Shown here: positions 4,404 through 23,554 of the stretch, piece after piece
Layout of the letters: every line of letters starts with the position of its first letter
How positions within the stretch are numbered: position 1 is the first letter of the stretch
Assembly: GCA_017962495.1 (NCBI GenBank)
Contig: JAGCVH010000102.1
Location: 1-42,945, forward strand
Reading direction: 5' to 3'
DNA length: 42,945 bases
DNA from: Bacteroidaceae bacterium
GTDB lineage: Bacteria; Bacteroidota; Bacteroidia; Bacteroidales; Bacteroidaceae
The notes under the pieces: model-generated
What the model was told of the DNA's origin: nothing
Databases searched by the model: none
The model's input: only the letters and a program-made list of their open reading frames with translations
Made by a program: the position numbers and the translations under genes

Positions 4404-5291
4404 ATGGAAAACAAGTCACAGATCATGCGGGAGATTACGCCTCTGTCAGAGCGTGATTGCTTCTACATCGCCGATAGGCACAAGGCAGCCTTCGACTATC
4501 CCATTCATTGCCACCATGAGTACGAACTGAACTTTACGGAGCATGCCATAGGCGCGCATCGCATCGTGGGTGACTCGGAGGAGGAGGTGGGCGACTACGA
4601 CCTCGTGCTCATCGCGGGGTCGAACCTGGAACATGTGTGGGAACAAGGTACTTGCACGCGTGACGACATTCGCGAGATTACCATACAGTTTGAGCAGGAC
4701 CTCTTGCCCGAGAGTCTGCTGCAGAAGAACCAGTTCAACTCGATTCGTCGTATGTTCGAGCGGGCGCAGTGTGGTTTGGCGTTTCCCCTGCCCGTGATTA
4801 TGAAGGTGTATTCCAAACTCGACAATCTGGCGCATCACAGGAAGGGCTTCCATGCCGTGCTCGACTTTCTGGACATCCTCTACGAACTGTCGATCTGCAA
4901 CAATGCGCGACAACTGAGCAGTTCGGCGTTTGCACGCATAGAGACGCATAGCGAGAGCAGGCGGGTGGACAAGGTGCAGAAGTACATAGCACGGCACTTT
5001 GCCGAGGAGATACGCCTGGAGAAGATGGCAGAGATGGTGGGGATGACGCCTGAGGCCTTCAGCCGTTTCTTCCATCAGCGTTCGGGTCGCACACTGTCGG
5101 ACTATATCCTGGACATACGCATCGGGTCGGCAACCCGCATGTTGGTGGATTCCACTACCAGCATTGCCGAAATCTGTTACGATTGCGGTTTCAACACGCT
5201 GTCGAACTTCAATCGCGTGTTTAAGCGTAAGAAGGGGTGTTCGCCTTCGGAATTCAGGGAAAACTATCAGAAGAAAAAAGTATTCATTTAG
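4404..5291 (+). CDS. AraC-family transcriptional regulator
   Basis: This 295-residue protein has the two-part build of AraC regulators. The N-terminal part (about residues 20-110) is a cupin-like sensor domain with the His-rich start HCHHEYELNF. The C-terminal part (about 190-290) is a double helix-turn-helix: the first includes LEKMAEMVGMTPEAFSRFF, and the second ends in the signature DCGFNTLSNFNRVFKRKKG followed by SPSEFRE. It is likely a cytoplasmic activator that responds to a mannan-derived sugar. It lies 99 bp upstream of the first gene of the mannan locus and points the same way. Local AraC-type control, rather than a hybrid two-component or SusR-type regulator, would be the control point of the locus. 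The ligand is not known. Confidence 0.9.
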   Translation: MENKSQIMREITPLSERDCFYIADRHKAAFDYPIHCHHEYELNFTEHAIGAHRIVGDSEEEVGDYDLVLIAGSNLEHVWEQGTCTRDDIREITIQFEQDLLPESLLQKNQFNSIRRMFERAQCGLAFPLPVIMKVYSKLDNLAHHRKGFHAVLDFLDILYELSICNNARQLSSSAFARIETHSESRRVDKVQKYIARHFAEEIRLEKMAEMVGMTPEAFSRFFHQRSGRTLSDYILDIRIGSATRMLVDSTTSIAEICYDCGFNTLSNFNRVFKRKKGCSPSEFRENYQKKKVFI

Positions 5292-8300: not shown

Positions 8301-8654
8301 CAGAACGACGGTGTCCTGCAAGGTACATACGAAGAAATGGATCTCACAAGCGAGGCTATCATCTTCCGTGAAGGCAAGTGCGAGATGAGCACTGAGGAGA
8401 CAGCTAAGATCTACAGGAATCAGGCTTATGTGGTTCCCGACGGCAAGGCAGACGCCAGTGGTTCGTACAGCCTCGTGCTGGAGGTTGGCGCAACAGTCGA
8501 CGGCATCAGCAAGGCCATCAGTAATGTTTCCCGTCAGGGCGATGTCTATGACATGTCGGGTCGGCTTGTTAAGAGCAAGGCCACGCTTAATGACGTTCAT
8601 TCACTCCCGCAAGGAATCTATATCCTGAACGGAATAAAGATATTGGTAAAATGA
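5391..8654 (+). CDS. Large secreted multi-module protein with discoidin-like (F5/8 type C) domain
   Basis: This 1087-residue protein begins with a signal peptide (MKRLFTCLFAMLLTLVVNAK). A beta-sandwich-like module (about 25-130) is followed by a helical FIVAR-like segment (about 140-225). A beta-trefoil-like module then starts with GYYRFICARQF. A discoidin/CBM32-like domain (about 440-585) includes DGSNSTFWHSYW and YQYLRFYAEKTS. A second helical segment and a second trefoil-like module (KFYTIRFASEDL) follow. The C-terminus has the VYDMSGRLVK...GIYILNGIKILVK tail, a sorting-type end seen in many secreted Prevotella proteins. I see no catalytic domain, so it probably binds glycan at the cell surface or in the periplasm. 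As the first gene of the operon it may replace a SusD-like binder. It overlaps the next gene by 4 bp (ATGA). Domain borders are approximate. Confidence 0.7.
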   Translation: MKRLFTCLFAMLLTLVVNAKVDIDYSSRFEEGTNTINCTSAWGWHSVNLGSSFEIEEAEYLYISYESSCNFNLILQNENWQNAYSVVCRMDETEGYIKLTPGAVPYFSCVVIQNHAEGEITINKIYFCSEDEFYNPAPDDLEGARANLIEIYLRYQKYLDQFEVGEDYGQYPADLYQTFSDAVNAALIMDNEEEMEKLTVEQLNAMSQAIVDAYKALVAAKKMYLPSNGYYRFICARQFVEGSYEEGWTNVTKAMYSDNTGANNWKTVDREDATFLWTLEQQEDKTYILRNASNKLIFNSAEKCGDKENFISIDAISKVDGAYNTIWPLSTDEDIIMFNFRFSDQPANDYKYIHMNWHSSGTGWGGPITVWCNTTEDSGASEWYLEPVDESVAQELLNSNYSFAFAQMLTDAKEKAAIADDMTREKLITDAEQFSSPFSQNDLGQRDGGNLAEGVLLDGSNSTFWHSYWSGGNAEAGLHYLQVEMAEEIGGEIEFDFSRRKGASDDHVTMWGIYGSNDFDGEKYDYEWITDLETPYGSNDESIVTRFTIEDGKKYQYLRFYAEKTSSNRGYWHVSEFQLYALSENPNNQAQNMGETYTNLLNAIAKAETVDQSAVSKADYDALKAAYDAFMEKFVDPSELRMALESAETAIDLCTIGDNPGEWTQEVYDGFIQQIEEVKTYDQSGKYTQEQTDAFIALLGDGKSAILASANKVSPDKFYTIRFASEDLYDERGWSTSNVLSEDWGDLFDTYLCPADAETLESTPADELRQGSFMFFTNDDKADIAFRFIPVGDKFIIQHQASGLFIQCYGRNSWTGLTLTPSLFTVEAVGYGENIIRGVDYEDKDLACLHAQLNNHRLVTWQDDYAGCNSGLIIEEIDADAVGKPLADYKAGEVTTMCYPVSVQPSEGSLFSVVGTYSADDKVYVAMNKVEKAEAGQPVVYIAKGTYDEEKEDDVNTITLTIGTSVVTTPQNDGVLQGTYEEMDLTSEAIIFREGKCEMSTEETAKIYRNQAYVVPDGKADASGSYSLVLEVGATVDGISKAISNVSRQGDVYDMSGRLVKSKATLNDVHSLPQGIYILNGIKILVK

Positions 8655-9835
8655 AAAGGATTTGGTTAATAAATATGGGTCAGTCATTGCGAGCTCTCTT
8701 CGGAGGGCTTGCAATGCTGCTTTTTGCACCACCCGTAATGGGACAAGTGCAAAACATGATTGTCCATCGGAGTGATGGCACAAAAGTGATGTACAATGTC
8801 GAGCAAATAGACAGTGTCACCTTCGAAGAAGTTCCTCGCTGGGCAAACCGTTCGGTGGAGGCTCGCAAGTTGCTTACCTATCTCGACGAAGGGGTGGGCA
8901 AGCGCATGCTCTCAGGCGTCCATGCTTGTGTGAACTATAACACTCAAGAGGCCGACTGGGTGTATAAGCACACTGGAAAATACCCTGCCATCAACTGCAT
9001 CGATTTCATTCACGACATCTATTCCAGTTCGGGTGGATGGATAGATTATGGTAACCAGACGATATGGAAGAACTGGACCAACAAGCGAGGCATCATAGCG
9101 GCAATGTGGCACTGGAACATGCCTACGAACGACGGCAAAGACTATACCTGCACACCTGGTACCGCCGATGGTGAGACCAGTTTCAGTCCGTCGGCCATCT
9201 TCGACCCGACGAGTGAGGATTACAAGACTATGATTGCACGCATCGACCAAGTTGCCAATTGGATGAAGCCTATGGCGGCGGCTCGAGTTCCCATCATTTG
9301 GCGTCCTCTCCACGAGGCACAGGGAAACTGGAGCGACCAGTACCCTGGCACCAGTTGGCATAAGGCATGGTTCTGGTGGGGAATAGACGGACCAGAGGCC
9401 TTCGTGGAACTGTGGAAGGTGATGTATGATAGGATGGTCAACTATCATGGTTTGACCAATCTCATCTGGGTCTACAACGCAGGCGACTCGATGAAGTGGT
9501 ATCCTGGTGACGAGTATGTGGATGTAGTCGCTTTCGACTTCTACAACCAATCGCTTGCTGGCACGCGACAGTGGTATCAGTTCTTCAAAAAGAACTTCCC
9601 CGGCAAGATCTATGCCATCAGTGAGTTTGGCAGTATTCCCAAGATTTCCGAACTATGGGCCGATGGTCAGTACTGGAGTTTCATGGTGCCTTGGTGGGAC
9701 AATGCCCGCACGGGTAGTCCCAATAGCGAGGCTTTCAACAGCACCGACCATAACAATGCCAACATCGAATACTGGCAGGATGCACTGAAACAGGATTGCA
9801 TCATCACTCGCGACGAACTTCCCAATTTCAGATAA
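8651..9835 (+). CDS. Secreted GH26 endo-beta-1,4-mannanase
   Basis: This 394-residue protein has a signal peptide ending near VMGQ (31). A short module (about 35-60, with MIVHRSDGTKVMYNVEQIDS) follows, of a kind often seen at the N-termini of Prevotella secreted proteins. The rest is a complete GH26 barrel. The acid/base is E222 in IIWRPLHEAQGNW and the nucleophile is E325 in YAISEFG. The aromatic AWFWWG motif (239-244) follows the acid/base as in known mannanases. The reaction is internal hydrolysis of beta-1,4-mannosyl bonds; some GH26 enzymes release mannobiose. It overlaps the upstream gene by 4 bp and lies 4 bp before the esterase gene, so the three are translated from one message. The sequence does not tell endo from mannobiose-releasing mode. 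Confidence 0.92.
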   Translation: MKRIWLINMGQSLRALFGGLAMLLFAPPVMGQVQNMIVHRSDGTKVMYNVEQIDSVTFEEVPRWANRSVEARKLLTYLDEGVGKRMLSGVHACVNYNTQEADWVYKHTGKYPAINCIDFIHDIYSSSGGWIDYGNQTIWKNWTNKRGIIAAMWHWNMPTNDGKDYTCTPGTADGETSFSPSAIFDPTSEDYKTMIARIDQVANWMKPMAAARVPIIWRPLHEAQGNWSDQYPGTSWHKAWFWWGIDGPEAFVELWKVMYDRMVNYHGLTNLIWVYNAGDSMKWYPGDEYVDVVAFDFYNQSLAGTRQWYQFFKKNFPGKIYAISEFGSIPKISELWADGQYWSFMVPWWDNARTGSPNSEAFNSTDHNNANIEYWQDALKQDCIITRDELPNFR

Positions 9836-9839
9836 AACG

Positions 9840-10628
9840 ATGAAGAAGCAAGTATTTCTCCTCCCTCTCTTTGCCCTTCTTGCTTTGGGCGTGAAAGCAC
9901 AACTCTTCCCCGATTTCACGAAGATGAACTTCGGGTGTGACGGCAACAGTATTACCTCGGGCAATCAATGGTCTGCAACCGTTGTCAAGCAACTGGGCTT
10001 TGCCACACATCACAATGTTGCAGTGGGTTCTGCCACATGGGCTTGCCACGCCGACACGCAGGACTATGGCACAGAGGGCTTTGCCGGTATTTCCGGAGGA
10101 TGGCAACCCACCCAAGACGCCTCCGAACTCCAGAAGCGTCACAACAACACATCGAAAGTCCACATCCAGAAGTTTATCGCAGAAGTGGAGTCGGGTCAGT
10201 ATCCCGAACCCGATGTATTCGTCTTTTCCATGGGTACGAACGACAACAAACTGGGTTCGGCAGAGGAGGCATTGAAGGGTAAATCGTTGGACGAAGTGGA
10301 TGTGACGACAATGGCAGGAGGTGCGCGATGGGCTATCCAGACCATCATCGAACGCTTCCCCAAGTGTCGCGTATTCGTATGCACACCCATCCAAACGGCG
10401 AATACGGGACACAATGAATTCAACCTGAAAAAGATAGAAATCCTGCGCGAGATTTGTCGTTCCCTCTCTGTGCAACTGATTGATTGCTATGGCGAGAGTG
10501 GCATCACGGAGAAACTGGAGAACGGACATGGGCAGAGATACCTTCGCGATGGGCTCCATCCTGCCGAGGAAGGCCAGCAACTGATGGGACGATACATTGC
10601 CAAGGAAATACGCAACAATTACTTTTAA
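9840..10628 (+). CDS. Secreted SGNH/GDSL-family carbohydrate esterase
   Basis: This 262-residue protein has a signal peptide (cleaved near VKAQ, 18-21) and the SGNH blocks. The nucleophile is S37 in CDGNSITSG, block III is GTND (N134), and D237-x-x-H240 is in RDGLHP. The fold removes ester groups from sugars. Set between two GH26 genes, it most likely removes acetyl groups from mannan so that the mannanases can reach the backbone. The exact CE family is not certain from the motifs. It is probably periplasmic or secreted. It is in the same operon, 4 bp after the GH26 gene and 27 bp before the GH26-CE7 gene. Confidence 0.85.
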   Translation: MKKQVFLLPLFALLALGVKAQLFPDFTKMNFGCDGNSITSGNQWSATVVKQLGFATHHNVAVGSATWACHADTQDYGTEGFAGISGGWQPTQDASELQKRHNNTSKVHIQKFIAEVESGQYPEPDVFVFSMGTNDNKLGSAEEALKGKSLDEVDVTTMAGGARWAIQTIIERFPKCRVFVCTPIQTANTGHNEFNLKKIEILREICRSLSVQLIDCYGESGITEKLENGHGQRYLRDGLHPAEEGQQLMGRYIAKEIRNNYF

Positions 10629-10655: not shown

Positions 10656-12932
10656 ATGAAACGGTTCCTCCTTTCCCTGTTCCTCATGACTGCACTCTCA
10701 AGTGTGGCACAAAACGAGATAACCCCTCAACTTGTCGATAAAGAGGCAACAGGAGCAACGCGACAACTCTACCGCTATCTCCGTGAGGAAGTGTGGGGCA
10801 AGCAAGTGCTTTCGGGATGTCAGGCTCGGTGGGACTATAACACGACAGATGCCGATGGCATTCGTGAGCGTGCTGGCAGATATCCTGCCATCAACATCTT
10901 CGACTTCCAACACTTCCGCCAGCGCAATCTGAATTATATGGGACCTACGGCAAAGGCTTGGAATGACGCAGGTGGTATTGTAGGTTTCATCTGGCATTGG
11001 AGTGTACCCATCAGTACTGACCTATCGCCGAAGGAGGGCTTTGCTTTCTATTCCCCTTCTGGTGCACAGGGTCGTCGGGGTACGCTTTTCTCACCGCGTC
11101 GTGCCGTGCAGCCAGGAACACCTGAACAACGCATCATCAACGAAAACCTTGACACCATCGTCAAGTATTTCCTGCACTATCAGGAACAAGGCATCGCCAT
11201 CCTCTGGCGTCCCTTCCACGAGGCGGCAGGCAATAGCAACCGTGGTGGAAAGGCTTGGTTCTGGTGGGGTAACGACGGTGCTGAAGCCTTCAAAGCGCTC
11301 TACCTCTACACCCAACGCTATCTCTTGGAGCGTGGTGTACACAATCTCATCTACATCTGGACTTCAGAGTTGGACGACGATGACTGGTATCCTGGTGACG
11401 AGTATGTCGACATTGTGGCGCGCGACCAATATCATGTGGCTTCGCAACACGGTTCGTTCAAGAAACAGTTTGATATCTTGCGTGAAAAGTATCCTACCAA
11501 GATGCTCGCTCTTGCCGAATGTGACTGTGTGCCAAGTGCCGAGGCTATGCAGAAGGACGAAGCCCTTTGGCTCTTCGTTGCACCTTGGACAACACCCTTC
11601 GTCTTCAGTCAGCAAAACGACGATGCATTCTGGCGGAAGTTCCTTTCAGAGAGACTTATCCTGACACGCGACGAGGTGAATCGTACAGGGCAGTTTAGAC
11701 TCAGTATCAACAAGGAGAGTGGGGTGTATGAGAAAGGCGAGCGTGCAGTGGTATCGTGTCATGCCAGTGTTGTGCCTCTCGATTCGCTCACGGTTCGCGT
11801 CTCATATAACAATAAGGTGGATAGTGTATTTCGTCTGTTGCCATCGAGCAATGACTTCACGGTCTTCGAACAAGCGCTCGATAGCACTTGTGCCATTGTT
11901 CTATCGTTGGAAGGCATAGGTTCGAGACGCATCGAGTCTATAGGTTATGTCGTAAGCCCTGAGGGATTCAAAGCGGGATATGCCGAACCGTCCGACTTTA
12001 TGTCGTATTGGGACAATCAGAAGAAACAACTCAAGGCATTGCCCATGCAGGTCAAGACGACATCGTTGGAAGTACCTCAACAGTATCAGGGCAAATATGT
12101 TTGTCAGGATGTGGAGATCAACTGCCTTGGACCTGCCCCAGTGCGAGCTTATATGGCAAAGCCTGTCAAAGCCAAGAAGAAGTCACTGCCCATCATCATC
12201 CTTTGTCGTGCGGCAGGTGTCAGTGGAGACTGGTGTCGTTGTCAGGTAGGCGAATGTGTGGGAAATGCAGCCTTAGGCAATGGAGCCCTAAGCCTCGACA
12301 TCAATGCCCATGGGATGCTCAACGGACAGACGAACGAGTATTACCGAATGCTTGAAGAGGGAATGCTTCGCAACTATTATGAACACAATGCGGCAGACCG
12401 CGAGACCTATTATTTCCGTGGGATGTACCTGCGTCTCTTACGCGCTATCGAGTACATGACACAACAACCCGAATGGGACGGTAAGCGCATACTCGTCATT
12501 GGTGAGAGTCAGGGCGGAGGACAGGCTGTTGCTGCAGCAGGACTGGATTCACGCGTGTCTGCCATCGTACTCAATGTTCCTGCGATGCAAGATTTAGGTG
12601 GAGCCCGTGCTGGAAGGCGCAGTGGATGGCCACAACCCATCGAGAGTCACAGAAACCTTACCCCTGCACAGATTGATGCCACATTGCCATACTTCGATGG
12701 GGCGCAACTCATTCGCCATTCGAAGGCAGAGATATATTGCGAAATAGGGCTCATCGACACCACCTGTCCACCCTCTGCCGTTTGGGCTTCGCTCAATGGT
12801 GCACCAGGCAAGAAGACCGTCAATTGTGTGCCTTATCGCACGCATTCCTGGCCATCTGGAGACATACGACCTCAGTGGGAAGAAAAGTATTTGCGTCCTC
12901 GTCTGGCATTCATAGATAACTATCTTAAATAA
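10656..12932 (+). CDS. GH26 mannanase fused to CE7-type acetyl esterase
   Basis: This 758-residue protein starts with a signal peptide (cleaved near SVAQ, 16-19). Residues about 30-345 form a GH26 domain with acid/base E189 in LWRPFHEAAGN and nucleophile E288 in LALAECDCVP. A beta-rich linker module (about 350-435) follows. Residues about 440-758 form an alpha/beta hydrolase of the acetyl xylan esterase (CE7, AXE1) type: S618 in GESQGGG, D701 in GLIDTTCPP and H730 in YRTHSWP form the triad. One chain therefore carries both backbone cleavage and deacetylation, which suits acetylated glucomannan. The surroundings of the GH26 nucleophile (ECDC) differ from the common SEFG. The neighbours are an SGNH esterase upstream and a GH5 20 bp downstream. 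Confidence 0.88.
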   Translation: MKRFLLSLFLMTALSSVAQNEITPQLVDKEATGATRQLYRYLREEVWGKQVLSGCQARWDYNTTDADGIRERAGRYPAINIFDFQHFRQRNLNYMGPTAKAWNDAGGIVGFIWHWSVPISTDLSPKEGFAFYSPSGAQGRRGTLFSPRRAVQPGTPEQRIINENLDTIVKYFLHYQEQGIAILWRPFHEAAGNSNRGGKAWFWWGNDGAEAFKALYLYTQRYLLERGVHNLIYIWTSELDDDDWYPGDEYVDIVARDQYHVASQHGSFKKQFDILREKYPTKMLALAECDCVPSAEAMQKDEALWLFVAPWTTPFVFSQQNDDAFWRKFLSERLILTRDEVNRTGQFRLSINKESGVYEKGERAVVSCHASVVPLDSLTVRVSYNNKVDSVFRLLPSSNDFTVFEQALDSTCAIVLSLEGIGSRRIESIGYVVSPEGFKAGYAEPSDFMSYWDNQKKQLKALPMQVKTTSLEVPQQYQGKYVCQDVEINCLGPAPVRAYMAKPVKAKKKSLPIIILCRAAGVSGDWCRCQVGECVGNAALGNGALSLDINAHGMLNGQTNEYYRMLEEGMLRNYYEHNAADRETYYFRGMYLRLLRAIEYMTQQPEWDGKRILVIGESQGGGQAVAAAGLDSRVSAIVLNVPAMQDLGGARAGRRSGWPQPIESHRNLTPAQIDATLPYFDGAQLIRHSKAEIYCEIGLIDTTCPPSAVWASLNGAPGKKTVNCVPYRTHSWPSGDIRPQWEEKYLRPRLAFIDNYLK

Positions 12933-12952
12933 GACTTTGACATCATATCATT

Positions 12953-14320
12953 ATGCGTATCCGAAGATTTACATCCATCCTGTTGTTGACGTTTCTCGTC
13001 AAAAGCCTGTCGGCACAAGAGGTTATCACTTTCGAGTTGGCTTCCGAGGCGGTAGAACACATGCGTTTAGGGTGGAATCTGGGCAATACCCTGGACAGTA
13101 ATTCGGGTGATACGCTACGCATGTGGATAGAGGCCAACAAGAACCGAACCCCTACAAGCTATGAGACGGCATGGGGACAGAAAGTGACGCAAGCCAAACT
13201 CTTCAAACTCTTCAAGGAAGCAGGATTCAATGCCGTGCGCGTACCCGTAACATGGTATCCTCACATGGAAGCTACCTTCAGTTCAGTAAACGGATATGAC
13301 GATAACGGAACATGGAGTTACACACCCTGGTTGCCTTCGAACGATGACATAGGAACGAAGATACAAAAGACTTGGATGAGGCGTGTGCGCCAGATAGTTG
13401 ACTACATCGTCAAGCAAGGCATGTACTGCATCCTGAACATTCATCACGACACTGGAGCATCCAATACGGCGTGGCTCATTGCTGACGAAGAAGTCTATGC
13501 ACGCCAGCACGAGCGTTTCGAAGCAATATGGACACAGATAGCAGAGGAGTTCCGCGACTATGACGAACATCTTCTCTTTGAGGGATATAACGAAATGCTC
13601 GATGCCAACCACTCGTGGTGCTATGCTCAGTTTGGTAGTACGCAGGGTTACGACGACGCGAAGGCAAAAGCTTCGTACAAGGCTATCAACAACTATGCCC
13701 AAAGTTTTGTCAATGCCGTGCGAGCAACGGGTGGAAACAATCTGCAGAGAAACCTTGTGGTTAGTACCTATGCAGCATGTGATGGAAATGGAACATGGAG
13801 CAGTCATCTGCAAGACCCACTGAAGGAAATGCAATTGCCCACAGATGTGGTGGACGGGCATCTCCTCTTCGAGGTTCATTGCTATCCCGATATCTCAACG
13901 CTGGCTTCGGCAAAGTCGAACCTAAACAAAACCATCTCACAACTGAAAGCCTATCTGGTGAAGAAGGGTGCTCCTGTGATTATCGGAGAATGGGGCATCA
14001 GTGGTGGTGGTGATAATAGGGACAATCATATCGAATTCGTCAAGTTCTTTGCCCAGCGTTGCAAGGAAAATGGTATAGGACTATTCCATTGGATGGGACT
14101 TTCCGACGGTGAACATCGTACTGTGCCTGAGTTCAACGAACAAGACCTTGTGGATGCAATGGTGGAGGGGTTCTACGGTGAAGGTGGATATGTGGATGGG
14201 ATAGAGATTCCCTATGCGCCACAACCTCAGGATTCGAAATGTTTCAATCTTTCTGGAATCCCATCGTCCGACAAGCAACATGGCATCTATCTGAAGAATG
14301 GCAAAAAATACATCAAATGA
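12953..14320 (+). CDS. Secreted GH5 endo-beta-glucanase/mannanase
   Basis: This 455-residue protein has a signal peptide (cleaved near LSAQ, 19-22) and a GH5 barrel. GWNLGNTLD (40-48) is at the start, NIHHD at 162-166, and the acid/base is E214 in FEGYNEMLD. H309/Y311 is in VHCYPD and the nucleophile is E346 in IIGEWG. The motifs look like the GH5 group with endoglucanase and xyloglucanase members (GH5_4-like) rather than GH5_7 mannanases. In this locus it would cut glucose-containing stretches of glucomannan; direct mannanase activity is also possible. About 60 residues at the C-terminus end in GIYLKNGKKYIK, a short form of the secreted-protein tail seen elsewhere in the locus. Confidence 0.85.
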   Translation: MRIRRFTSILLLTFLVKSLSAQEVITFELASEAVEHMRLGWNLGNTLDSNSGDTLRMWIEANKNRTPTSYETAWGQKVTQAKLFKLFKEAGFNAVRVPVTWYPHMEATFSSVNGYDDNGTWSYTPWLPSNDDIGTKIQKTWMRRVRQIVDYIVKQGMYCILNIHHDTGASNTAWLIADEEVYARQHERFEAIWTQIAEEFRDYDEHLLFEGYNEMLDANHSWCYAQFGSTQGYDDAKAKASYKAINNYAQSFVNAVRATGGNNLQRNLVVSTYAACDGNGTWSSHLQDPLKEMQLPTDVVDGHLLFEVHCYPDISTLASAKSNLNKTISQLKAYLVKKGAPVIIGEWGISGGGDNRDNHIEFVKFFAQRCKENGIGLFHWMGLSDGEHRTVPEFNEQDLVDAMVEGFYGEGGYVDGIEIPYAPQPQDSKCFNLSGIPSSDKQHGIYLKNGKKYIK

Positions 14321-14321
14321 T

Positions 14322-16658
14322 ATGAAAAAGACATTTATGACTAGCCTTTTAGCAACAAGTCTGCTTGCTCTCCATGCCCAGCAACCTGCCATCCCTCGTG
14401 ATGAGAAAGTAGAAAAACAGGTGGAACAAACACTGGCTCGTCTCTCGCTCGACGAGAAGATAGGACAGATGTGCGAACTTACTATCGATGTCATCACAGA
14501 CGGACGGAGTCAGGAATTCCGCCTGAACGAGGATGCCCTGCAGAAAGTGTTCAACCAATATCATGTGGGAAGCATTCTGAATGTGCCAAAGGGTGTGGCA
14601 CAAAAGCCTGAGGTGTGGAGTGTCCTCATCCGACGACTGAACCAACTCTCAATGGAGACTTGTTCTGGAGTGCCTCAGATCTATGGTGTCGACCAGATTC
14701 ATGGTGCTTCATACACTTGGGGGGCAACACTCTTTCCGCAAGAGATAGGTCAGGCGGCTTCCTTCAATCGAAACATCCCTCGCCGTGTCAGTGAGATTGC
14801 GGCTTATGAGAGTAGGGCAGGTCTTATTCCTTGGGTGTATTCGCCCGTGATGGATTTGGGACGCCAACCACTATGGAGTCGAATGTGGGAAAGCTATGGC
14901 GAGGATGTCTATCTCAATTGTGAAATGGCCCGACAGGCAGTGCTTGGCTATCAGGGCAACGACACTAACCATATCGGTCCACAGAACGTGGCCGCATGCC
15001 TGAAACATTATATGGCTTATGGTGTGCCAGTCAGTGGCAAGGATCGTACGCCCAGCAGTGTCACTGAACGGGAGATGCGTGAAAAGTTCTTCCAACCCTT
15101 CCGCAGTGCTATCCTGGCAGGAGCCCTCTCTTTGATGGTGAATTCTGGTGTGAACAATGGTGTGCCTTTCCATGCCAATTCCAAGTATCTGACAACATGG
15201 TTGAAGGAGGAGTTGCAGTGGGATGGTATGATTGTGACGGACTGGGCAGACATCAACAACATCTGCACGCGTGACCATATTGCAGCAACGAAGAAAGATG
15301 CCATCTGTCTGGCCATCAATGCAGGCATAGATATGTCCATGGTGCCTTACGAAGTGGAATTCTGTGACCTGTTGAAGGAATTGGTCGACGAGGGTCGTGT
15401 GCCTATGACACGCATCGATGATGCCGTGCGCCGCATCCTTCGGTTGAAGATTCGACTTGGGCTCTTGGATAAGAAGACCTGGGACAAGGATGTTACGAAA
15501 TTAGCGAAGGAATTCCCCGATTTTGCCAGCGAACGCTATGCTCTTGAGGCAGAACAGATGGCGGAGGAGTGCTTGGTGCTGTTGAAGAATGAAAATATAA
15601 GTGGGGAGAATGAAAAGTTATTGCCTTTGAAGCAAGGCACAAAATTGTTGGTTTGTGGACCTAATGCCGATAATCTGCGTGGCATGAATGGTGGATGGTC
15701 TTATACATGGCAAGGCGACCGTACTAACGAACTTGCACCAAAGATGGGTGTATATCCCACCTTCCAGCAAGCGCTGAAGGAAAGATTCGGAACTGAGAAT
15801 GTGCAGTACTTGCAAGGCGTGCGCTGGGACGGTAGGAACTTTGACCTCGACCACCAGGCATCGGACTGGAGCCAACTGACAGATGCGGCACAAAAGGCCG
15901 ATGTCATCATCTGTTGTGTAGGCGAAAACTCGTATTGTGAGACACCAGGCAATATCAATGACCTGAATCTTAGCGACAATCAAAAGGAGATGGTACGCCA
16001 GTTGGCAAAGACAGACAAACCTATTGTCCTTGTCCTGACCGAAGGACGTCCACGCATCATTCGTGATATCGAACCTCTGTGTAAGGCAGTCGTCCACACA
16101 TTCCTGCCCAGTAACTATGGTGGCACTGCATTTGCACGCCTGTTGGCAGGCGATGCCGATTTCACGGGTCGCATGCCTTATACCTATCCCAAATACACAG
16201 GAGCCCTTGTTACCTACGACTACAAACCTTGTGAAAACATGGGACAGATGGGTGGAAATTACAACTACGATGCCGTCATGGACGTTCAGTGGCCCTTTGG
16301 CTATGGATTGCACTATACTACGGTGAGTTACAACAATATGCGTGTGGACAAGTCCACCTTCCGCAAGGGAGATGTACTCACCATCAGTGTGGATGTGAGC
16401 AACACTGGCCAACGGCTTACCCGTGAGAGCGTCCTTCTCTACAGCAGTGATCTTGTGGCAAGTCTCACTCCCGACATTCGTCGCTTGCGTGCTTTCGAAA
16501 AAGTGGAGTTGCAACCAGGCGAAACGCGGACTATTACTTTGCAATTGCCTGCCAACAATCTATCGTTTGTCGACCTGAACGACAAGTGGGTATTGGAACC
16601 AGGCGAGTTCCGCCTTTCCATTGCCAACCAACATGTGACTGTAAAAGCTCTTGAATAA
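14322..16658 (+). CDS. GH3 beta-glycosidase (beta-glucosidase or beta-mannosidase)
   Basis: The start at 14322 is chosen because it gives a signal peptide (MKKTFMTSLLATSLLALHAQ). An in-frame ATG at 14298 would lie inside the GH5 gene and spoil it. The 778-residue protein has the GH3 N-terminal barrel with K228-H229 in CLKHYMAYG and the nucleophile D307 in VTDWAD. An alpha/beta sandwich domain (about 410-640) and a C-terminal fibronectin III-like domain (about 690-775) complete it. The length is typical of BglX-like enzymes. It removes terminal beta-linked sugars from oligosaccharides in the periplasm. With glucomannan as substrate, glucose or mannose could be released; the sequence does not decide. 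It starts one base after the GH5 stop codon. Confidence 0.88.
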   Translation: MKKTFMTSLLATSLLALHAQQPAIPRDEKVEKQVEQTLARLSLDEKIGQMCELTIDVITDGRSQEFRLNEDALQKVFNQYHVGSILNVPKGVAQKPEVWSVLIRRLNQLSMETCSGVPQIYGVDQIHGASYTWGATLFPQEIGQAASFNRNIPRRVSEIAAYESRAGLIPWVYSPVMDLGRQPLWSRMWESYGEDVYLNCEMARQAVLGYQGNDTNHIGPQNVAACLKHYMAYGVPVSGKDRTPSSVTEREMREKFFQPFRSAILAGALSLMVNSGVNNGVPFHANSKYLTTWLKEELQWDGMIVTDWADINNICTRDHIAATKKDAICLAINAGIDMSMVPYEVEFCDLLKELVDEGRVPMTRIDDAVRRILRLKIRLGLLDKKTWDKDVTKLAKEFPDFASERYALEAEQMAEECLVLLKNENISGENEKLLPLKQGTKLLVCGPNADNLRGMNGGWSYTWQGDRTNELAPKMGVYPTFQQALKERFGTENVQYLQGVRWDGRNFDLDHQASDWSQLTDAAQKADVIICCVGENSYCETPGNINDLNLSDNQKEMVRQLAKTDKPIVLVLTEGRPRIIRDIEPLCKAVVHTFLPSNYGGTAFARLLAGDADFTGRMPYTYPKYTGALVTYDYKPCENMGQMGGNYNYDAVMDVQWPFGYGLHYTTVSYNNMRVDKSTFRKGDVLTISVDVSNTGQRLTRESVLLYSSDLVASLTPDIRRLRAFEKVELQPGETRTITLQLPANNLSFVDLNDKWVLEPGEFRLSIANQHVTVKALE

Positions 16659-16675: not shown

Positions 16676-19600
16676 ATGACTACCAGATTTCTTTCTTCCT
16701 TATTAATGATGCTCATAGGTTGGGGTAGTGTCACAGCACAAACCATCCAACTGAGTGCCAAATCATCGGGTAAACAATTCGACGGTATCGGAGCCGTCAA
16801 TGGTGGTGGTGCCACCTCTGTCCTGCTGAAGGACTATCCCGAACCACAACGTTCACAGATTATGGATATGGTGTATAAGCCCATGTTTGGAGCATCAGTC
16901 AGTGCCATTCTTGTGGAGGTTCCCGGCGATGGCAACAGCACACAAGGTTCGATGCCAAGTCACAGTCATTATCGTGGAGATGCCAACTTCCTGCGTGGTT
17001 ATATGTGGTGGGTAATGCAAGAGGCAAAGCGCCGCAATGCCGCCCTATCACTCGATGCCACTAGTTGGAGCGCACCTGCCTGGGTGGGCAATTTCTGGTC
17101 GGATGATATGGTGGATTATTATATCGATTGGATGAAAGGTCTGCGTCAGGTGCATGGTTTGGAACTCGATGCTTTGGGATGCCACAACGAAAAGGGTTGG
17201 CACGGTGACTTTGCCAAACACATGCGCAAGGCGATGAACGAGCGCGGTTTCCGTGATGTGAAACTTCATGGCTTCGGCAATTGGGGTAATCAGAAGATGG
17301 ATTTTCTCAAGCGCATGCAGGAAGACAAAGAACTGGCGGATGCTCTCGATGCCGTTTGTGCTCACACCTTCAGTGAGATACAGTTGACACCCGAACAACG
17401 CAAGATGGCTGAAGACATGGGTAAACCCATTTGGAACAGTGAGGACCACGTCTATCTGCCAGGCTTCGACTGTCTCATAAGCATCGTCAAATGTTTCAAT
17501 GCCAACTACATCGTCAGTGGAGCAACAAAGGTCGTCAATTGGTATGACATTGGAGCCACCTATCCCTTGGAACCCTACAGCAAGGAGCCTCCTATGCTGT
17601 TGGCACAGGAACCTTGGAGTGGACACTACATCGTGCGTGAGGCACTTTGGGGCTATGCCCACTATGGACAGTTTACTCGTGTGGGTTGGCGTTATGTCGA
17701 CGATGGTTGTCTAAACCTGCCCGAAGGTGGTTCTATGGTGACAATGCGTGACCCGCAGACGGGTAACTACAGCATCATTGCTGAAACGAAGGGCGTTAAA
17801 AAAACGCAAACCGTCAAGGTTCGTGTGGCCAATGATTTGTCTCAAGGAAAACTATGCGTTTGGTATAGCGATGCCCAGCAACAATTTGTTCGTCTGAAGG
17901 ACATCACTCCTAAGGGTGGCAATATCACCCTCACTCTGAAGCCCGATGCAGTATATTCCTTCTCCACGACAACTGGACAGCAGAAGGGTTCGTTTGCCAA
18001 CATTCCAAGTTCCAAGCCCTTCCCAATACCCTATGCCGAAGATTTCGAACAATACGGAAATGCCGAAGAGTGGGGTTACCTGCCACATTATCTGGCCGAC
18101 CTCATAGGATGTTTCGAACTTACTCCTTCACCCGCACGCAAGGGCATGTCGATACGGCAAACCGTTGGTGCCCACACCCTCAGTTGGGCACCTGAATGGC
18201 ATCACTACACCATTTTGGGCGATGCCAGTTGGGAAGATTATGAAATAAGTGCCGATGTTTATCTCAATCCTGGTGATGAGGCTGGTGTGATGGGACGCCT
18301 CTGCGACGTGGGTTCTGGCTATGGCATATGGGCAAAAGGTTACTACTTAAAGTTGGACGACAATGGCCATTGCACACTCATTCTGACCCGTGGAAAGCGC
18401 AATCAAAGAGAACTCATCGGTGATAAGGAACAGCAGGCACTCATCCTTGCCCGTAAGGATGTGGAGATAGGTGGTGAATACACCCTTGCTGAAGCTGATG
18501 TCAAAGGTATCTCAGCCCTGAAGTGGTACAATCTTAAACTTCGCTTCGATGGTGACCAGATTGTTGGTTTCGTCGATGGAGTAGAGGTGGTACGAGCCAC
18601 ATCAGATCATTATGGCAAGGGTATGGCTGGACTTATTGCCCCGATGCACGAACGCAATATATCCACTCCCTATTTCGACAACCTGTGTCTGACACCCATT
18701 GGTCGCACTAAAGCCACATCTACTACTATTCCTACCATACAACCACTCTATCCTCAACAGTCGTCTGTCACAGGCCGCGAAACATTGCTCCAACGTTTAA
18801 GAAGACTCACCGATCGTGGTATTATGTTTGGTCATCAGGATGCTCCGTTCTATGGCTTAGGCTGGCAATGGGATCGTGGTCGTTCGGATGTGCTTGCTGT
18901 CAGTGGTGACTATCCTGCCGTGATGGGTTTCGAACTTGGTGGCATAGAAATGGGTAATGAGAAAAACCTTGACAGCGTACCTTTCAATCGCATTCGCGAA
19001 GAACTATTGGCACACGTTCGTCGTGGTGGCATAGCTACTATTTCGTGGCATCCACGTAATCCGTTGACAGGTGGTACGGCTTGGGACAACAAGAACAAGG
19101 AAGTGGTTCGCAGTATCTTGCCTGAAGGTTCACAGCATGAGAAATTCCAACTTTGGATGTTGCGACTCTCTGCCTTCTTACGGTCGTTGTGTGATGAGCA
19201 CGGGCGTCCCGTTCCTTTTATCTTCCGCCCTTGGCATGAGAATAGTGGTGGCTGGTTTTGGTGGGGTAGAGGACTCTGTACCACAGAGGAATACAAGGCA
19301 TTGTGGAACCTTATTCAAGACCGACTCATAGCCGACGGCCTCACGAACATTGTGTGGAGCTGGAGTCCTAACTATGGTTACCCATCCGACATCTTCGACA
19401 CCTATCCGGGCGACGACCGTGTGGACATTATAGGTCTCGATGCCTACCAACAGCGAGGTGGCGAGAAGGATTTCATCAGTACACTCAACAAGGACCTCAC
19501 TCAGTTATGCAATTATGCTAAGAAAGCTAACCGACTGGTGGCACTTACTGAGTGTGGTTACCTTAATATACCCGACCCCACATGGTGGACGCGTGTGCTG

Positions 19601-19762
19601 AAGCCTCAAATCGAACAATACCCCCTTTGCTATTTCCTCGTGTGGCGCAATGCCGACAGACGGCAGTACTTTGCTCCTGCACCTGATACCAAGGATGCCC
19701 CCGACTTCTGCCGTATGGTTGAGGACAGTAAGATACTGATGTTAAAGGATATTGAAGATTGA
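16676..19762 (+). CDS. GH59 (galactocerebrosidase-like) - lectin - GH26 mannanase fusion
   Basis: This 1028-residue secreted protein (signal peptide cleaved near TAQT, 20-23) joins two glycosidases. Residues about 25-430 match the galactocerebrosidase (GH59) barrel: [17 protein letters not shown] and [20 protein letters not shown] are clear signatures. The acid/base candidate is E172 in CHNEKGW and the nucleophile candidate is E256 in IWNSEDH. Residues about 450-675 match the lectin-like domain of that family ([30 protein letters not shown]). Residues about 695-1025 form a GH26 mannanase with acid/base E855 in [14 protein letters not shown] and nucleophile E959 in [10 protein letters not shown]59 enzymes remove beta-galactose. 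Fusing this to a mannanase suggests a mannan bearing beta-galactosyl side chains. That target is inferred; both domain calls are firm. Confidence 0.85.
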
Positions 19763-19782: not shown

Positions 19783-20949
19783 ATGAATTACGAATCACGA
19801 CTGAAACAGATATGTGAGCGACACGAGGCATTGCTTATGCTTCAGAATGAGCCCGAGGAATGGGGTAACGGAATATATGAGCGCTACAAACATCCCATCT
19901 TGACTGCAGAACATACCCCGTTAGAATGGCGATATGACTTTAATAAAAAGGATAATCCCTACTTGATGCAGCGCATTATGATGAACGCCGTACTTAATGC
20001 CGGTGCCATCAAAATAAACGGACGATACTTGTTGGTATGTCGGGTGGAGGGTGCTGACCGCAAGTCGTTCTTTGCAGTGGCTGAAAGTCCAAATGGTGTG
20101 GATAACTTTCGATTCTGGCCTGAACCTATCACAATGCCCGAATCAGCAATTCCTGCTACCAATATCTACGACATGCGCCTGACACAGCATGAGGACGGAT
20201 GGATATATGGTGTGTTTTGTGCTGAACGACACGATGATTCACAATGTGGTGACCTCAGTGCTGCTGTTGCAACAGCGGCCATAGCGCGTACCAAAGACCT
20301 GAAGACATGGGAGCGATTGCCCGATCTTGTATCGAAGAGCCAGCAACGCAACGTGGTCTTGCATCCAGAATTCGTAGATGGCATGTATGCTTTCTATACT
20401 CGTCCGCAAGATGGTTTCATTGATACTGGTTCGGGTGGCGGAATAGGATGGGCTTTGGTGAAAGACATCACACATGCCAAGATAGAGGAGGAAATCATAG
20501 TCAATTCTCGTCACTACCATACCATCATGGAGGTAAAGAATGGCGAAGGCCCTGCTCCACTAAAGACACCACAAGGTTGGCTTCATCTGGCTCATGGCGT
20601 TCGTGGCACAGCCAGCGGCCTGCGTTATGTACTTTATATGTATATGACAGCTCTCAACGACCCCACCCTCGTCATAGCTCAGCCAGGTGGTTATTTTCTT
20701 GCACCTCAGGGCGATGAGTATATTGGCGATGTGATGAATGTATGCTTTTCCAACGGATGGATTATGGACGATGATGGGCGTGTTCTCATTTATTATGCCT
20801 CCAGCGATACTCGTTTGCATGTGGCAGTTTCTTCTGTCGACCGACTTATTGACTACTGCATGAATACTCCTGCTGACGGATTGACAACAGGTGCCAGCGT
20901 AGAAACCATCAAACGACTCATAAACAAGAATAAACAATGGCGCGATTAA
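19783..20949 (+). CDS. GH130 beta-1,4-mannosylglucose phosphorylase
   Basis: The ATG at 19783 is preferred over a TTG at 19759 that overlaps the previous gene; it gives 388 residues, the usual length. There is no signal peptide, so it works in the cytoplasm. NIYDMRLT holds the catalytic Asp (D130), and [20 protein letters not shown] and [12 protein letters not shown] are typical of GH130 subfamily 1. The enzyme splits 4-O-beta-D-mannosyl-D-glucose with phosphate into mannose-1-phosphate and glucose. Its substrate is made by the epimerase encoded two genes downstream. It overlaps the symporter gene by 13 bp. Subfamily 1 fits better than the chain-trimming subfamily 2, because the epimerase is present. 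Confidence 0.92.
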
Positions 20950-22355
20950 GTGAGAAAATAGGCTATGGACTGGGCGATATGTCGTCGTCGATGTTCTGGA
21001 AGGTGTTTTCCTATTATCTTCCTTTTTTCTATAGCAACATCTTCGGCCTGCGTTTTGCAGATGCAGCTGTCTTAGTGTTGGTAACCCGTATTTGGGATGC
21101 CGTTTCTGATCCCATGATGGGTATTATTGCCGATCGCACTCAGACGCGTTGGGGTAAGTATCGACCCTACCTGTTATGGGTTGCTCCGTTTTTCTCCATC
21201 TGTGGCATTCTGCTATTTACCACACCCGACTGGGAGTATGGGGCAAAGCTTATCTGGGCATACATTACTTATATTTTGATGATGACAGTTTACACAGGCA
21301 TTAATGTTCCCTATGGTGCTATGCTGGGTGTAATAACAGATAATTCGCAAGAGAAAACTGTCTTTTCTTCATTTAGAATGTTCTTTGCCTATGGTGGTTC
21401 GTTTGTCGCTTTGGCCGCATGGGAACCACTTGTGAAATGGATGATGAACAATGGAAAAAGCACAATGACAACAGCCGATGCATGGCAAGGGGCTATGATG
21501 GTAATAGCCGCAGCTTGTTTTATCCTCTTTCTGCTGTGCTTTGCTCTTACCCGTGAACGATTGAAGACCGTTAGCACTGTTTCCATAGGTAGGGACTTCA
21601 AGGCCCTTCTCTCCAATGGTCCTTGGTGGTTAATGATAGGTGCTGCGCTTTGTTTCAATCTCTTCTGTACCGTTCGTGGTGCCACAGTAGCCTACTATTT
21701 TGCCGATGTCATAGGCTTCGATGCTATGCTTGGCCTTTCGGTTTTCAATTCTCATTTTTCGATTCTGTTCTATGCTGGCCTCTTCCTAAGCATTGGCGAA
21801 GTAGCCAATATGATAGGTGTTGTTTGCACTGTTCCTTTGGCTCGTCGGTTGGGCAAGAAATCCACTTTCATATGTGTTAATACTTGTCTGGCAATCTGCT
21901 CAGTATTGTTTTTCTTTATTCCCGTATCGCCATTGGGATTCTGGCTTATGCTACTGATGCAGATAATTATATCCATGCTTACGGGCATTATGTCGCCCCT
22001 CATCTGGTCGATGTATGCTGATGTTAGCGATTATGCCGAGTTGAAGTACAAGACAGCCAGTACAGGTCTTATCTTCTCGTTTTCTTCAATGGCTCAGAAG
22101 TTTGGAGGTGCCATAGGTGGTGCAGCAGTCTTGTGGTTGCTGGGCGCTTGTGGTTATGTGCCTCGAACCGATGAACAGCTGGCAGTTAAAGCCGTACTGG
22201 AACAACCCGAGTCGGCAATCCGCGTCCTCTGGTATTTAATGTCATTCATCCCTGCTGCCGTAGCAATACTGGCTATTGTGATAGCTCGCTTCTATCCACT
22301 TACAGTGCAGCGTGTGAATGATATTGAAGAACAACTGAAACTGCAAAGACAATGA
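20937..22355 (+). CDS. GPH-family sugar:cation symporter
   Basis: This 472-residue inner-membrane protein has about 12 hydrophobic segments. The GPH (glycoside-pentoside-hexuronide) signatures are clear at the N-terminus: [29 protein letters not shown] and [17 protein letters not shown]. It should carry mannobiose or short manno-oligosaccharides into the cytoplasm together with Na+ or H+. It lies between the phosphorylase and the epimerase, overlapping the first by 13 bp and the second by 4 bp. That tight coupling makes import and cytoplasmic breakdown one translational unit. No outer-membrane partner of the SusC type is present in the locus. Confidence 0.9.
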
Positions 22356-23554
22356 TGGAAGCGCTGAAAGCAGACATGCGCCAAGTGCTCGAGGAGAACA
22401 TCCTGCAGTACTGGATGGAACGAATGGTGGATGAAGAGCATGGTGGCTTTTACGGACGCAGGGATGGAGAAGACCATTTAATAAAGGATGCACCCAAGGG
22501 AGCAGTATTAAATGCCCGTATTCTTTGGACCTTCTCAGCCGCCTATCGTGTACTTTCCAAACCTGCTTACCTCGACATGGCCCTGCGAGCCAAGGAGTAC
22601 ATCCTGAATCATTTCATCGATTATGAGTATGGTGGAGTCTATTGGATGCTTGATTTTAAGGGAAATCCCATTGACTGTAGGAAGCAGATCTACGCCATAG
22701 GGTTCATGATATATGGTTTCTCGGAATTGTATCGAGCAACTGGCGATGAAAAGGCGCTAAAGACGGCAATCCAATTGTTTAATGACATTGAACGTCATGC
22801 TTATGACAGTCAGAATAATGGTTACATCGAAGCACTGACACGCGAATGGCAACCCATCGGGGATATGCGTCTCTCCGATAAAGATGAGAACGGAAGTCGC
22901 ACGATGAATACTCATCTGCACATACTTGAACCCTACACCAACCTTTATCGCGTGTGGAAGGATAAGGAGTTGGAACAACAGTTGCGCAATCTTATTCACA
23001 TATTTGTTACCAAGATAGTGAACGCCCATTCGAGCCACCTCGACCTCTTTTTCGATGACCATTGGATGGGCGCTCGAGACATAGTGAGCTATGGGCACGA
23101 TATTGAGGCCGCCTGGCTCTTGACTGAAGCCTTGGAGATATTGGGAGATGAACAGCTTATTTCTGAAATCATGCCCATAGTCAATCGAATAGCGCAAGCC
23201 GCCGAAGAGGGCATACAACCTTGTGGGGCCATGCTAGATGAAAGGCGTGTTGGAGAGTCCATGTCCCCTCCTTTGAAAGGGCAAGGAGGAGATTTCGTTT
23301 GGTGGGTTCAATGCGAATGCATCATCGGTGAGTTGAACCAGTGGCAACATTTCGGAGATAATGAAGCTCTCGCTCGAGCATTGCGTTGTTGGGAATACAC
23401 GAAGCAACACCTTATTGACTGGGAGCATGGTGAATGGTATTGGAGCATACTGGAAAATGGTAAGATTAATCTCGACGACGACAAGGCTGGGCCTTGGAAA
23501 TGTCCTTACCATAACACACGTATGTGCATAGAGGTGATGGAGCGTATAGGGTAA
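22352..23554 (+). CDS. Cellobiose/mannobiose 2-epimerase (AGE family)
   Basis: This 400-residue cytoplasmic enzyme belongs to the N-acylglucosamine 2-epimerase superfamily, with an (alpha/alpha)6 barrel. The expected histidines are present: H188 and H190 in MNTHLHILEPYTN, H249 in SYGHDIEAAW, and H387 in CPYHNTRM near the C-terminus. It should turn beta-1,4-mannobiose into mannosyl-glucose for the GH130 phosphorylase. Around residues 300-313 the protein carries a stretch (ESMSPPLKGQGGD) encoded by a palindromic sequence. Related enzymes have a different loop before WWVQAE, so this looks like a small in-frame insertion. The downstream motif (WWVQCE) is intact, so activity is likely kept. Confidence 0.9.
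   Translation: MMEALKADMRQVLEENILQYWMERMVDEEHGGFYGRRDGEDHLIKDAPKGAVLNARILWTFSAAYRVLSKPAYLDMALRAKEYILNHFIDYEYGGVYWMLDFKGNPIDCRKQIYAIGFMIYGFSELYRATGDEKALKTAIQLFNDIERHAYDSQNNGYIEALTREWQPIGDMRLSDKDENGSRTMNTHLHILEPYTNLYRVWKDKELEQQLRNLIHIFVTKIVNAHSSHLDLFFDDHWMGARDIVSYGHDIEAAWLLTEALEILGDEQLISEIMPIVNRIAQAAEEGIQPCGAMLDERRVGESMSPPLKGQGGDFVWWVQCECIIGELNQWQHFGDNEALARALRCWEYTKQHLIDWEHGEWYWSILENGKINLDDDKAGPWKCPYHNTRMCIEVMERIG
23267..23289. repeat. Palindromic insert inside the epimerase gene
   Basis: CCTCCTT at 23267-23273 and AAGGAGG at 23283-23289 form a perfect 7-bp inverted repeat around a 9-bp spacer, in frame within the epimerase gene. It resembles short C/T-rich palindromes scattered in Bacteroidales genomes. 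It encodes the loop residues PPLKGQGG just before the conserved WWVQCE motif. Confidence 0.5.

What the first reader, a model, noticed from the sequence alone, without database searches (positions are those of the whole stretch)
16676..19762. GH59-lectin-GH26 fusion in a mannan locus
A galactocerebrosidase-type (GH59) barrel with its lectin domain is fused to a GH26 mannanase. Catalytic glutamates are in place in both halves. GH59 is known for beta-galactosidase action, while ordinary galactomannan carries alpha-galactose. A mannan with beta-galactose in its side chains, such as the beta-galactoglucomannan reported from plant primary walls, would explain the fusion. The locus has no alpha-galactosidase. 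The target is inferred.
Basis: partly seen in the sequence, partly recalled or inferred. Interest (0 to 1): 0.75.

Follow-up and report, generated by a model that had tools for sequence, protein, structure and literature searches.

The report
Two-enzyme fusion for plant-wall mannan
A bacterium of a ruminant-gut group carries a protein that welds a galactose-removing enzyme (known from animals as the Krabbe-disease enzyme) to a mannan-cutting enzyme, and relatives made the same pairing again with the halves in the opposite order, which points to a shared target, probably the beta-galactose-capped mannan of broad-leaved plants.

Summary
ORF 16676-19762 is a GH59 enzyme with all three galactocerebrosidase domains, a linker, and a GH26 mannanase; both catalytic pairs (E172/E256, E855/E959) are in place. 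It is no accident: 23 of 139 same-genus genomes carry the fusion. New here: Prevotella sp. P6B1, a Xylanibacter ruminicola MAG and two further uncultured genomes joined GH26 and GH59 in the opposite order, from another GH26 lineage (one origin rejected, AU p 3e-47 on 33 chosen rows). The same GH26 type is elsewhere fused to a GH27 alpha-galactosidase, also in this genome. [quoted passage not shown] The window lacks one, but 17 of 25 sister loci have GH36 (3 also GH27); of GH59 loci without GH26 nearby, 1 of 19 has one. Best reading: GH59 removes the beta-1,2-galactose cap, an alpha-galactosidase the stub, and GH26 cuts the exposed backbone. Xyloglucan, with the same cap, is the main rival. Nothing has been assayed; the structure model is weak at the GH59 active site.

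The parts
16676..19762 (+). GH59-GH26 fusion gene, 1028 aa
16676..16738 (+). N-terminal signal-peptide-like stretch (residues 1-21), no lipobox cysteine
   Evidence: read by eye; no predictor run
16778..17671 (+). GH59 barrel (residues 35-332)
   Evidence: (PF02057 E 4.4e-81)
17189..17191 (+). E172, acid/base (GALC E182)
   Evidence: E in 79 of 79 rows that reach this column, of 82 aligned
17441..17443 (+). E256, nucleophile (GALC E258)
   Evidence: E in 81 of 81 rows that reach this column, of 82 aligned
17714..17980 (+). GH59 central beta-sandwich (residues 347-435)
   Evidence: 2.2e-5, below cut-off; inside the span of the GALC alignment
18104..18703 (+). GH59 lectin-type domain (residues 477-676) with W504, the equivalent of GALC W524
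18707..18769 (+). linker (residues 678-698)
   Evidence: pLDDT under 50
18770..19759 (+). GH26 domain (residues 699-1028), BoMan26A/CjMan26C type
19238..19240 (+). E855, GH26 acid/base
19550..19552 (+). E959, GH26 nucleophile
4404..5291 (+). AraC-type regulator
8651..9835 (+). GH26, best solved match BoMan26B (6hf2)
9840..10628 (+). GDSL esterase
10656..12932 (+). GH26-AXE1 esterase fusion; its GH26 lineage is the one used in the reversed GH26-GH59 fusions
12953..14320 (+). GH5, best solved matches 6xso (cellulase) and 3vdh (endoglucanase)
14298..16658 (+). GH3 beta-glucosidase, best solved match BoGH3B (984 bits)
19783..20949 (+). GH130, 4-O-beta-D-mannosyl-D-glucose phosphorylase type (start placed by comparison with relatives)
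20937..22355 (+). MFS/GPH sugar symporter
22352..23554 (+). cellobiose 2-epimerase-like (EpiA; 371 bits, below NCBIfam's cut-off of 800)

Best explanation
A secreted, probably periplasmic, two-step enzyme for beta-galactoglucomannan. [quoted passage not shown] A GH36 or GH27 alpha-galactosidase, encoded near the fusion in most relatives and as GH27-GH26 elsewhere in this genome, removes the exposed alpha-galactose. The tethered GH26 half then cuts the Glc-Man backbone into disaccharides, which pass to GH3, the epimerase and the GH130 phosphorylase. Tethering puts a galactose-sensitive mannanase beside an activity that clears its path. Shown: domain content, catalytic and most sugar-pocket residues, recurrence, two independent joinings in opposite order, the same GH26 type on GH27, co-location with alpha-galactosidases and mannan-disaccharide genes. 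Inferred: the activity, the 1,2 linkage, beta-GGM as target, the location, and the benefit of tethering.
For: Galactose-pocket residues named for GALC in PMC4445328 (G48, T93, W135, N181, E182, E258, W524; passages) are identical in every row that reaches them (79 of 79 to 82 of 82). GH59 and GH26 were joined at least twice: GH59-GH26 (25 of 77 loci plus the window) and GH26-GH59 (4 of 77); one GH26 origin is rejected, AU p 3.4e-47, on 33 rows chosen out of 116. GH26 of the fused type is also attached to GH27, in this genome too (L057). Among the 26 strong GH59 genes of 301 family genomes, 14 lie within about 10 kb of GH26 (in 13 of them a separate GH26 gene, in L046 only the fused one); 12 of these 14 have GH27/GH36 in the stretch, 0 of the other 12 (window). 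In the 74 similarity-chosen loci with a GH59 ORF, 36 of 55 with GH26 have an alpha-galactosidase and 1 of 19 without; for unfused GH59 alone 16 of 26 against 1 of 19. Plant side (passages; abstract): an alpha-galactosidase did not shift the beta-capped oligosaccharides, and worked after a beta-galactosidase; beta-GGM alternates Glc and Man and is likely eudicot-specific. GH130 matches mannosyl-glucose phosphorylase (665 bits). BoMan26A, the nearest solved GH26, is hampered by galactose and helped by an alpha-galactosidase (passages).
Against: No assay exists. GALC S261 is V in the window (V, I or F in 78 of 81 rows) and GALC R380 has no conserved counterpart, so the sugar pocket is not identical. 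Of the two B. ovatus mannanases only BoMan26B, not BoMan26A, cut galactoglucomannan (abstract); the fused GH26 is of BoMan26A type. This window has no alpha-galactosidase beside the fusion, and 8 of 25 fusion loci show none (L068 and L073 of these end at or near the fusion). The GH3 and GH5 neighbours are nearest to glucan- or xyloglucan-type enzymes. 45 of the 74 GH59 loci are unfused or cut off, 19 of them without GH26; some GH59 sit in GH98/GH115 xylan-type loci, and the one other strong GH59 in 390 phylum genomes (G514/L058) has no GH26 found within 10 kb, so the family is not mannan-specific. The model has pLDDT under 50 around the GH59 nucleophile.
Confidence: 0.6

Rival explanations
1. 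The GH59 half removes the beta-1,2-galactose of xyloglucan side chains (Gal-beta-1,2-Xyl-alpha-1,6-Glc), alone or as well as that of beta-GGM; the locus is a mixed primary-wall hemicellulose locus.
For: Same terminal linkage (xyloglucan linkage recalled; likeness of beta-GGM and xyloglucan stated in PMC9614514 and PMC10735049). Window GH3 is closest to BoGH3B (984 bits); sister locus L040 carries an alpha-xylosidase closest to BoGH31A (1332 bits). The own genome has 3 GH31 genes on other contigs, of unchecked type.
Against: A GH31 relative lies in 1 of 25 GH59-GH26 loci and in 4 of all 77, against alpha-galactosidase in 17 of 25; the partner in both fusion orders is a mannanase family.
Confidence: 0.17
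2. The GH59 half is a glycosidase of another specificity, for example for alpha-L-arabinopyranose or another terminal sugar on mannan, because part of the galactose pocket has changed.
For: GALC S261 and R380, both listed among residues contacting the 3-, 4- and 6-hydroxyls, are not kept.
Against: The other listed contacts, including lectin-domain W524, are invariant; GH59 is described as a family of galactosylceramidases (passage of PMC11739564), and one Paenibacillus GH59 is annotated beta-galactosidase (passage of PMC4765114).
Confidence: 0.1
3. The GH59 half has lost catalysis and serves as a carbohydrate-binding or scaffold part of an ordinary galactomannan enzyme.
For: The model is poor around residues 255-321.
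Against: Both glutamates are invariant (79 of 79 and 81 of 81 rows), and GH59 recurs unfused in the same kind of locus.
Confidence: 0.05
4. The fusion is a neutral by-product of adjacent genes losing a stop codon and says nothing about a shared substrate.
For: GH59 and GH26 are often neighbours, and fused/unfused state changes repeatedly on the tree (11 changes; some 'unfused' rows are cut by contig ends).
Against: Two joinings in opposite order from different GH26 lineages; the fusion is present in 23 of 139 genus genomes. Even if neutral, the neighbourhood still ties GH59 to mannan.
Confidence: 0.08

Closest known systems
GH59 galactocerebrosidase (mouse GALC, 3zr5/4ccc)
   Same: Alignment runs over the whole chain (22-677 with 25-668), barrel, beta-sandwich and lectin domain in order; catalytic pair and most galactose contacts kept
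   Different: About 30% identical; S261 and R380 not kept; bacterial, in a polysaccharide locus, fused to GH26
BoMan26A / CjMan26C (GH26, 4zxo/2vx4)
   Same: 45% and 36% identical over 330-332 residues, rmsd 1.5-1.9; loop 2 that closes the cleft beyond subsite -2 has the same length
   Different: BoMan26A is a stand-alone mannanase of a galactomannan locus; here GH26 is tethered to GH59
PbGH26A-GH5A of Prevotella bryantii (6d2w)
   Same: A Prevotella protein with a GH26 mannanase fused to a second glycosidase
   Different: Second domain is a GH5 endoglucanase, not a side-chain galactosidase
B. ovatus galactomannan locus BoManPUL
   Same: Two GH26, GH36, isomerase and symporter (abstract and passages)
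   Different: No GH59 is named in the passages read; its SusD-like protein has no counterpart found in this window, but SusC/SusD genes are in L118
GH27-GH26 fusion of the same group of genomes
   Same: Same GH26 lineage joined to a galactosidase
   Different: Alpha- instead of beta-galactosidase; no account of it was looked for in print
Paenibacillus sp. JDR-2 GH59/CBM6/BIG4/BIG3/3SLH protein
   Same: A multi-domain bacterial GH59, annotated beta-galactosidase (table passage of PMC4765114)
   Different: Partners are binding and surface-layer domains, no second hydrolase

Membership tests
GH59 (galactocerebrosidase) | Sequence match to the GH59 family model over the barrel | tested here: met
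   PF02057 1-294/294, 272.8 bits against cut-off 27
GH59 (galactocerebrosidase) | Catalytic glutamates matching GALC E182 and E258 | tested here: met
   E172 and E256 in the alignments
GH59 (galactocerebrosidase) | Galactose contacts G48, T93, W135, N181, W524 | tested here: met
   residue list from passages of PMC4445328
GH59 (galactocerebrosidase) | Galactose contacts S261 and R380 | tested here: not met
   V259 and a variable K381 column; pocket contacts of GALC, not family-defining
GH59 (galactocerebrosidase) | Catalytic geometry in a structure model | tested here: inconclusive
   pLDDT under 50 at 255-284 and 288-321, though the whole fold aligns
GH59 (galactocerebrosidase) | Beta-galactosidase activity | not testable with these tools
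   needs expression and assay
GH26 mannanase | Family match, acid/base and nucleophile glutamates, conserved subsite residues | tested here: met
   PF02156 128.6 bits; E855, E959, H792, H854, W860, W990, Y924 by reading; subsite list from passages of PMC5217682
GH26 of BoMan26A/CjMan26C type (mannobiose-releasing) | Long loop 2 closing the cleft beyond subsite -2 | tested here: met
   ungapped alignment over loop 2; product pattern not testable here
Beta-GGM utilisation locus | Beta-galactosidase, alpha-galactosidase, mannanase, beta-glucosidase and mannosyl-glucose phosphorylase together | tested here: inconclusive
   All together in sister locus L050/L066; the window lacks the alpha-galactosidase
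Beta-GGM utilisation locus | Induction by, and growth on, beta-GGM | not testable with these tools
   needs cultures and beta-GGM

The most novel reading that the evidence does not exclude
GH59 in these gut Bacteroidales is a beta-1,2-galactosidase that uncaps primary-wall hemicellulose, and these are dedicated beta-galactoglucomannan utilisation loci, with GH59 and GH26 fused convergently in both orders and one GH26 lineage shared between beta- and alpha-galactosidases. If so, the animal galactocerebrosidase family has a bacterial, plant-wall branch with a defined polysaccharide target.
Probability: 0.5. Interest if true: 0.75.

Novelty: new variant of a known kind. Interest (0 to 1): 0.62.

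Why it matters
Beta-GGM was set out as a distinct eudicot primary-wall mannan in 2022 (PMC9614514), and the searches made here turned up no bacterial locus assigned to it (listings, plus passages of PMC11511968 and PMC10952531; the 'beta-galactoglucomannan' of PMC11511968 is spruce acetyl-GGM). A domain pair joined twice in opposite orders gives a directly testable enzyme and a possible tool for reading beta-GGM, where a fungal GH35 is used now. It would also give bacterial GH59 a polysaccharide substrate; the searches showed none, but they cover only the held library.

Tried and rejected
Tri-modular fusions: one search showed 'open frames' of 1451-1461 aa that seemed to hold GH59 and a second enzyme; fetching them and calling ORFs showed separate neighbouring genes, so that reading was dropped.

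Weak PF02057 matches (E about 1e-3 to 1e-18) were not counted as GH59: of 98 genomes with any match, the 26 with E below 1e-70 were kept. One weak-scoring protein was checked and scores far better as GH30; the others were not checked, nor was the second PF02057 match in the own genome (C99, 7e-8).

Xylan as the target of this GH59: a GH98/GH115/GH43 setting is real for L113, L115 and L122, but L115 and L122 fall with two other unfused rows in a separate clade and L113 stands outside the window's starred clade.

Limits of the counts: GH26, GH27 and GH36 were sought with queries taken from these same loci, so other alpha-galactosidase families (L104 has GH97) were not counted; loci are related and of unequal length; the 77 loci are the best 80 of 123 matches and were chosen by likeness to P0001.

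Literature: no paper for GH59-GH26 or GH26-GH59 wording; 3 for galactoglucomannan plus GH59, 1 for GH59, GH26, Bacteroid and fusion, 7 for GH59, GH26 and Prevotella, 4 for GH59, galactosidase and polysaccharide utilization, 0. Of these I saw listings, and passages of PMC10755729, PMC11739564 and PMC4765114; none seen describes this fusion. The library lacks most subscription papers. Passages only were also seen of PMC9614514, PMC4445328, PMC5764952, PMC5217682, PMC6556568, PMC11511968 and PMC10952531; abstract and section list of PMC10735049.

Full report
What is there. The ORF at 16676-19762 encodes 1028 aa. Pfam finds a complete GH59 barrel (35-332), weaker matches to the GH59 central and C-terminal lectin domains, and GH26 at 702-994. 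By sequence the best solved relatives are mouse galactocerebrosidase and B. ovatus GH26 4zxo. The AlphaFold model (45 aligned sequences, mean pLDDT 72, pTM 0.51) aligns over 22-677 with galactocerebrosidase and over 697-1028 with BoMan26A. Its confidence is under 50 around 255-284 and 288-321, so it cannot settle the GH59 active-site geometry.

Active sites. Mapping through and the residue list in passages of PMC4445328, GALC G48, T93, W135, N181, E182, E258 and W524 correspond to G44, T89, W131, N171, E172, E256 and W504, each identical in every row that reaches the column (79 of 79 to 82 of 82). W504 lies in the lectin domain, so that domain probably helps form the pocket, as in GALC. Not kept: S261 (V259) and R380 (a variable column at K381). 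In the GH26 half, E855 and E959 match BoMan26A E188 and E292, and loop 2, which closes the glycone end, has the same length.

How common it is. In 301 genomes of the family, 26 have a strong GH59 gene (E below 1e-70). Six of these 26 are GH59-GH26 fusions: the window, L041, L045, L049, L050 and L046, where the gene is interrupted. In the genus, 66 of 139 genomes match P0001 at 1e-60; 20 match over both halves, and 3 more carry the fusion cut by a contig end or split by the aligner (G753, G777, G740; G740 checked). Of 77 loci from named genomes, 25 hold GH59-GH26, 4 hold GH26-GH59, 45 an unfused or cut-off GH59, and 3 no GH59 ORF. Many titles name a ruminant gut site (goat, sheep, yak, buffalo, roe deer). 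This set was chosen by similarity to P0001, so its proportions are biased. In 390 genomes drawn from the phylum only the window's genome and one other (G514) have a strong GH59.

Two independent joinings. In Prevotella sp. P6B1 (L118), a Xylanibacter ruminicola MAG (L134), RUG765 (L114) and RGIG6979 (L124), GH26 is at the N terminus (28-314 in L118) and GH59 follows (366-663), in L118 beside SusC/SusD genes and a GH27 relative. This GH26 belongs to the lineage of the GH26-AXE1 proteins; the window's fused GH26 belongs to the lineage that is elsewhere fused to GH27. Forcing the two sets of fused GH26 into one clade is rejected (AU p 3.4e-47, 33 rows chosen from the 116). On the GH59 tree the two fusion types also lie in different clades (quick method, several long branches). 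Fused and unfused states change repeatedly (11 changes); some 'unfused' rows end at a contig edge.

Alpha-galactosidases. The window has none in the 24 genes scanned. The closest relative (L050/L066, 91% identical) has a GH36 between the fusion and GH130 and a GH27 with an esterase-like gene between GDSL and GH26-AXE1; the DNA comparison shows the window lacking about 2.2 kb and 2.5 kb at those two places. L067, equally close, has the GH36 but not that GH27. Of 25 GH59-GH26 loci, 17 have GH36 (directly downstream in 16, by the gene order) and 3 of these also GH27; of the 8 without, two end at or near the fusion. The window's own genome has a GH27-GH26 fusion on contig C76 with an esterase-like gene upstream, two other clear GH27-type genes plus one partial match, and a GH36 48% identical to the locus type. 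In the similarity-chosen set, 36 of 55 GH59 loci with GH26 carry an alpha-galactosidase and 1 of 19 without (Fisher p 6e-6; 6e-4 when only the 35 loci of 20 kb or more are kept); fused loci count as 'with GH26' by definition, and for unfused GH59 alone it is 16 of 26 against 1 of 19. In the less biased family survey the figures are 12 of 14 and 0 of 12. Loci are related, so the p values overstate the evidence. GH26 itself is rare: 4 domains on two contigs in this 2.95 Mb genome.

What it most likely does. [quoted passage not shown] The polymer is likely eudicot-specific (abstract of PMC10735049). A locus with GH59, GH36/GH27, GH26, a BoGH3B-like GH3, a mannosyl-glucose phosphorylase and an epimerase matches the order of steps. 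Activity, linkage and target remain inferred.

The main rival. Xyloglucan carries the same beta-1,2-galactose cap (recalled), and some GH59 loci contain an alpha-xylosidase, in L040 closest to BoGH31A. A GH31 is in 1 of 25 fusion loci and 4 of 77 in all; the own genome has three GH31 genes on other contigs, of unchecked type. Xyloglucan is more likely a second target than the main one. That BoGH3B and BoGH31A come from a xyloglucan locus, and the label CE7 for the AXE1 domain in scripts, are recalled.

Novelty. I found no description of the fusion in the held library, which lacks most subscription papers. Fused mannan enzymes are known (PbGH26A-GH5A), hence 'new variant of a known kind'. The unusual points are the second family, the opposite-order repeat, and a likely polysaccharide role for GH59.

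Noticed in passing
window 5391-8654: 1087-aa secreted-looking protein with an F5/8 type C domain and a below-cut-off T9SS tail match; only two weak matches among solved structures; relatives 53-72% identical in sister GH59 mannan loci. Possible surface binder or new hydrolase.
   Followed up: partly
L122:9095-11962 and L115: Esterase-GH59 fusion (L122) and unfused GH59 (L115) near GH98 and GH115, in L122 also a GH2 beta-galactosidase: GH59 also serves a xylan-type locus.
   Followed up: partly
L040:16739-19723: Alpha-xylosidase closest to BoGH31A inside a GH59 mannan locus, suggesting mixed mannan/xyloglucan loci.
   Followed up: partly
window 10656-12932: GH26-AXE1 esterase fusion, a second two-enzyme mannan protein in the same locus.
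   Followed up: no
L123:5187-7442: GH59 with only a 59-residue stretch of GH26-type sequence at its N terminus, within the clade of reversed fusions: probably a decayed one.
   Followed up: no
L080 and L082: GH59-GH26 whose GH26 is 91-94% identical to a GH27-linked one, as if exchanged by recombination; in L085 and L098 the GH59 half, not the GH26 half, falls in another clade.
   Followed up: partly
window 4404-25510: No SusC/SusD match among the scanned genes of the window's mannan locus, unlike L118.
   Followed up: no
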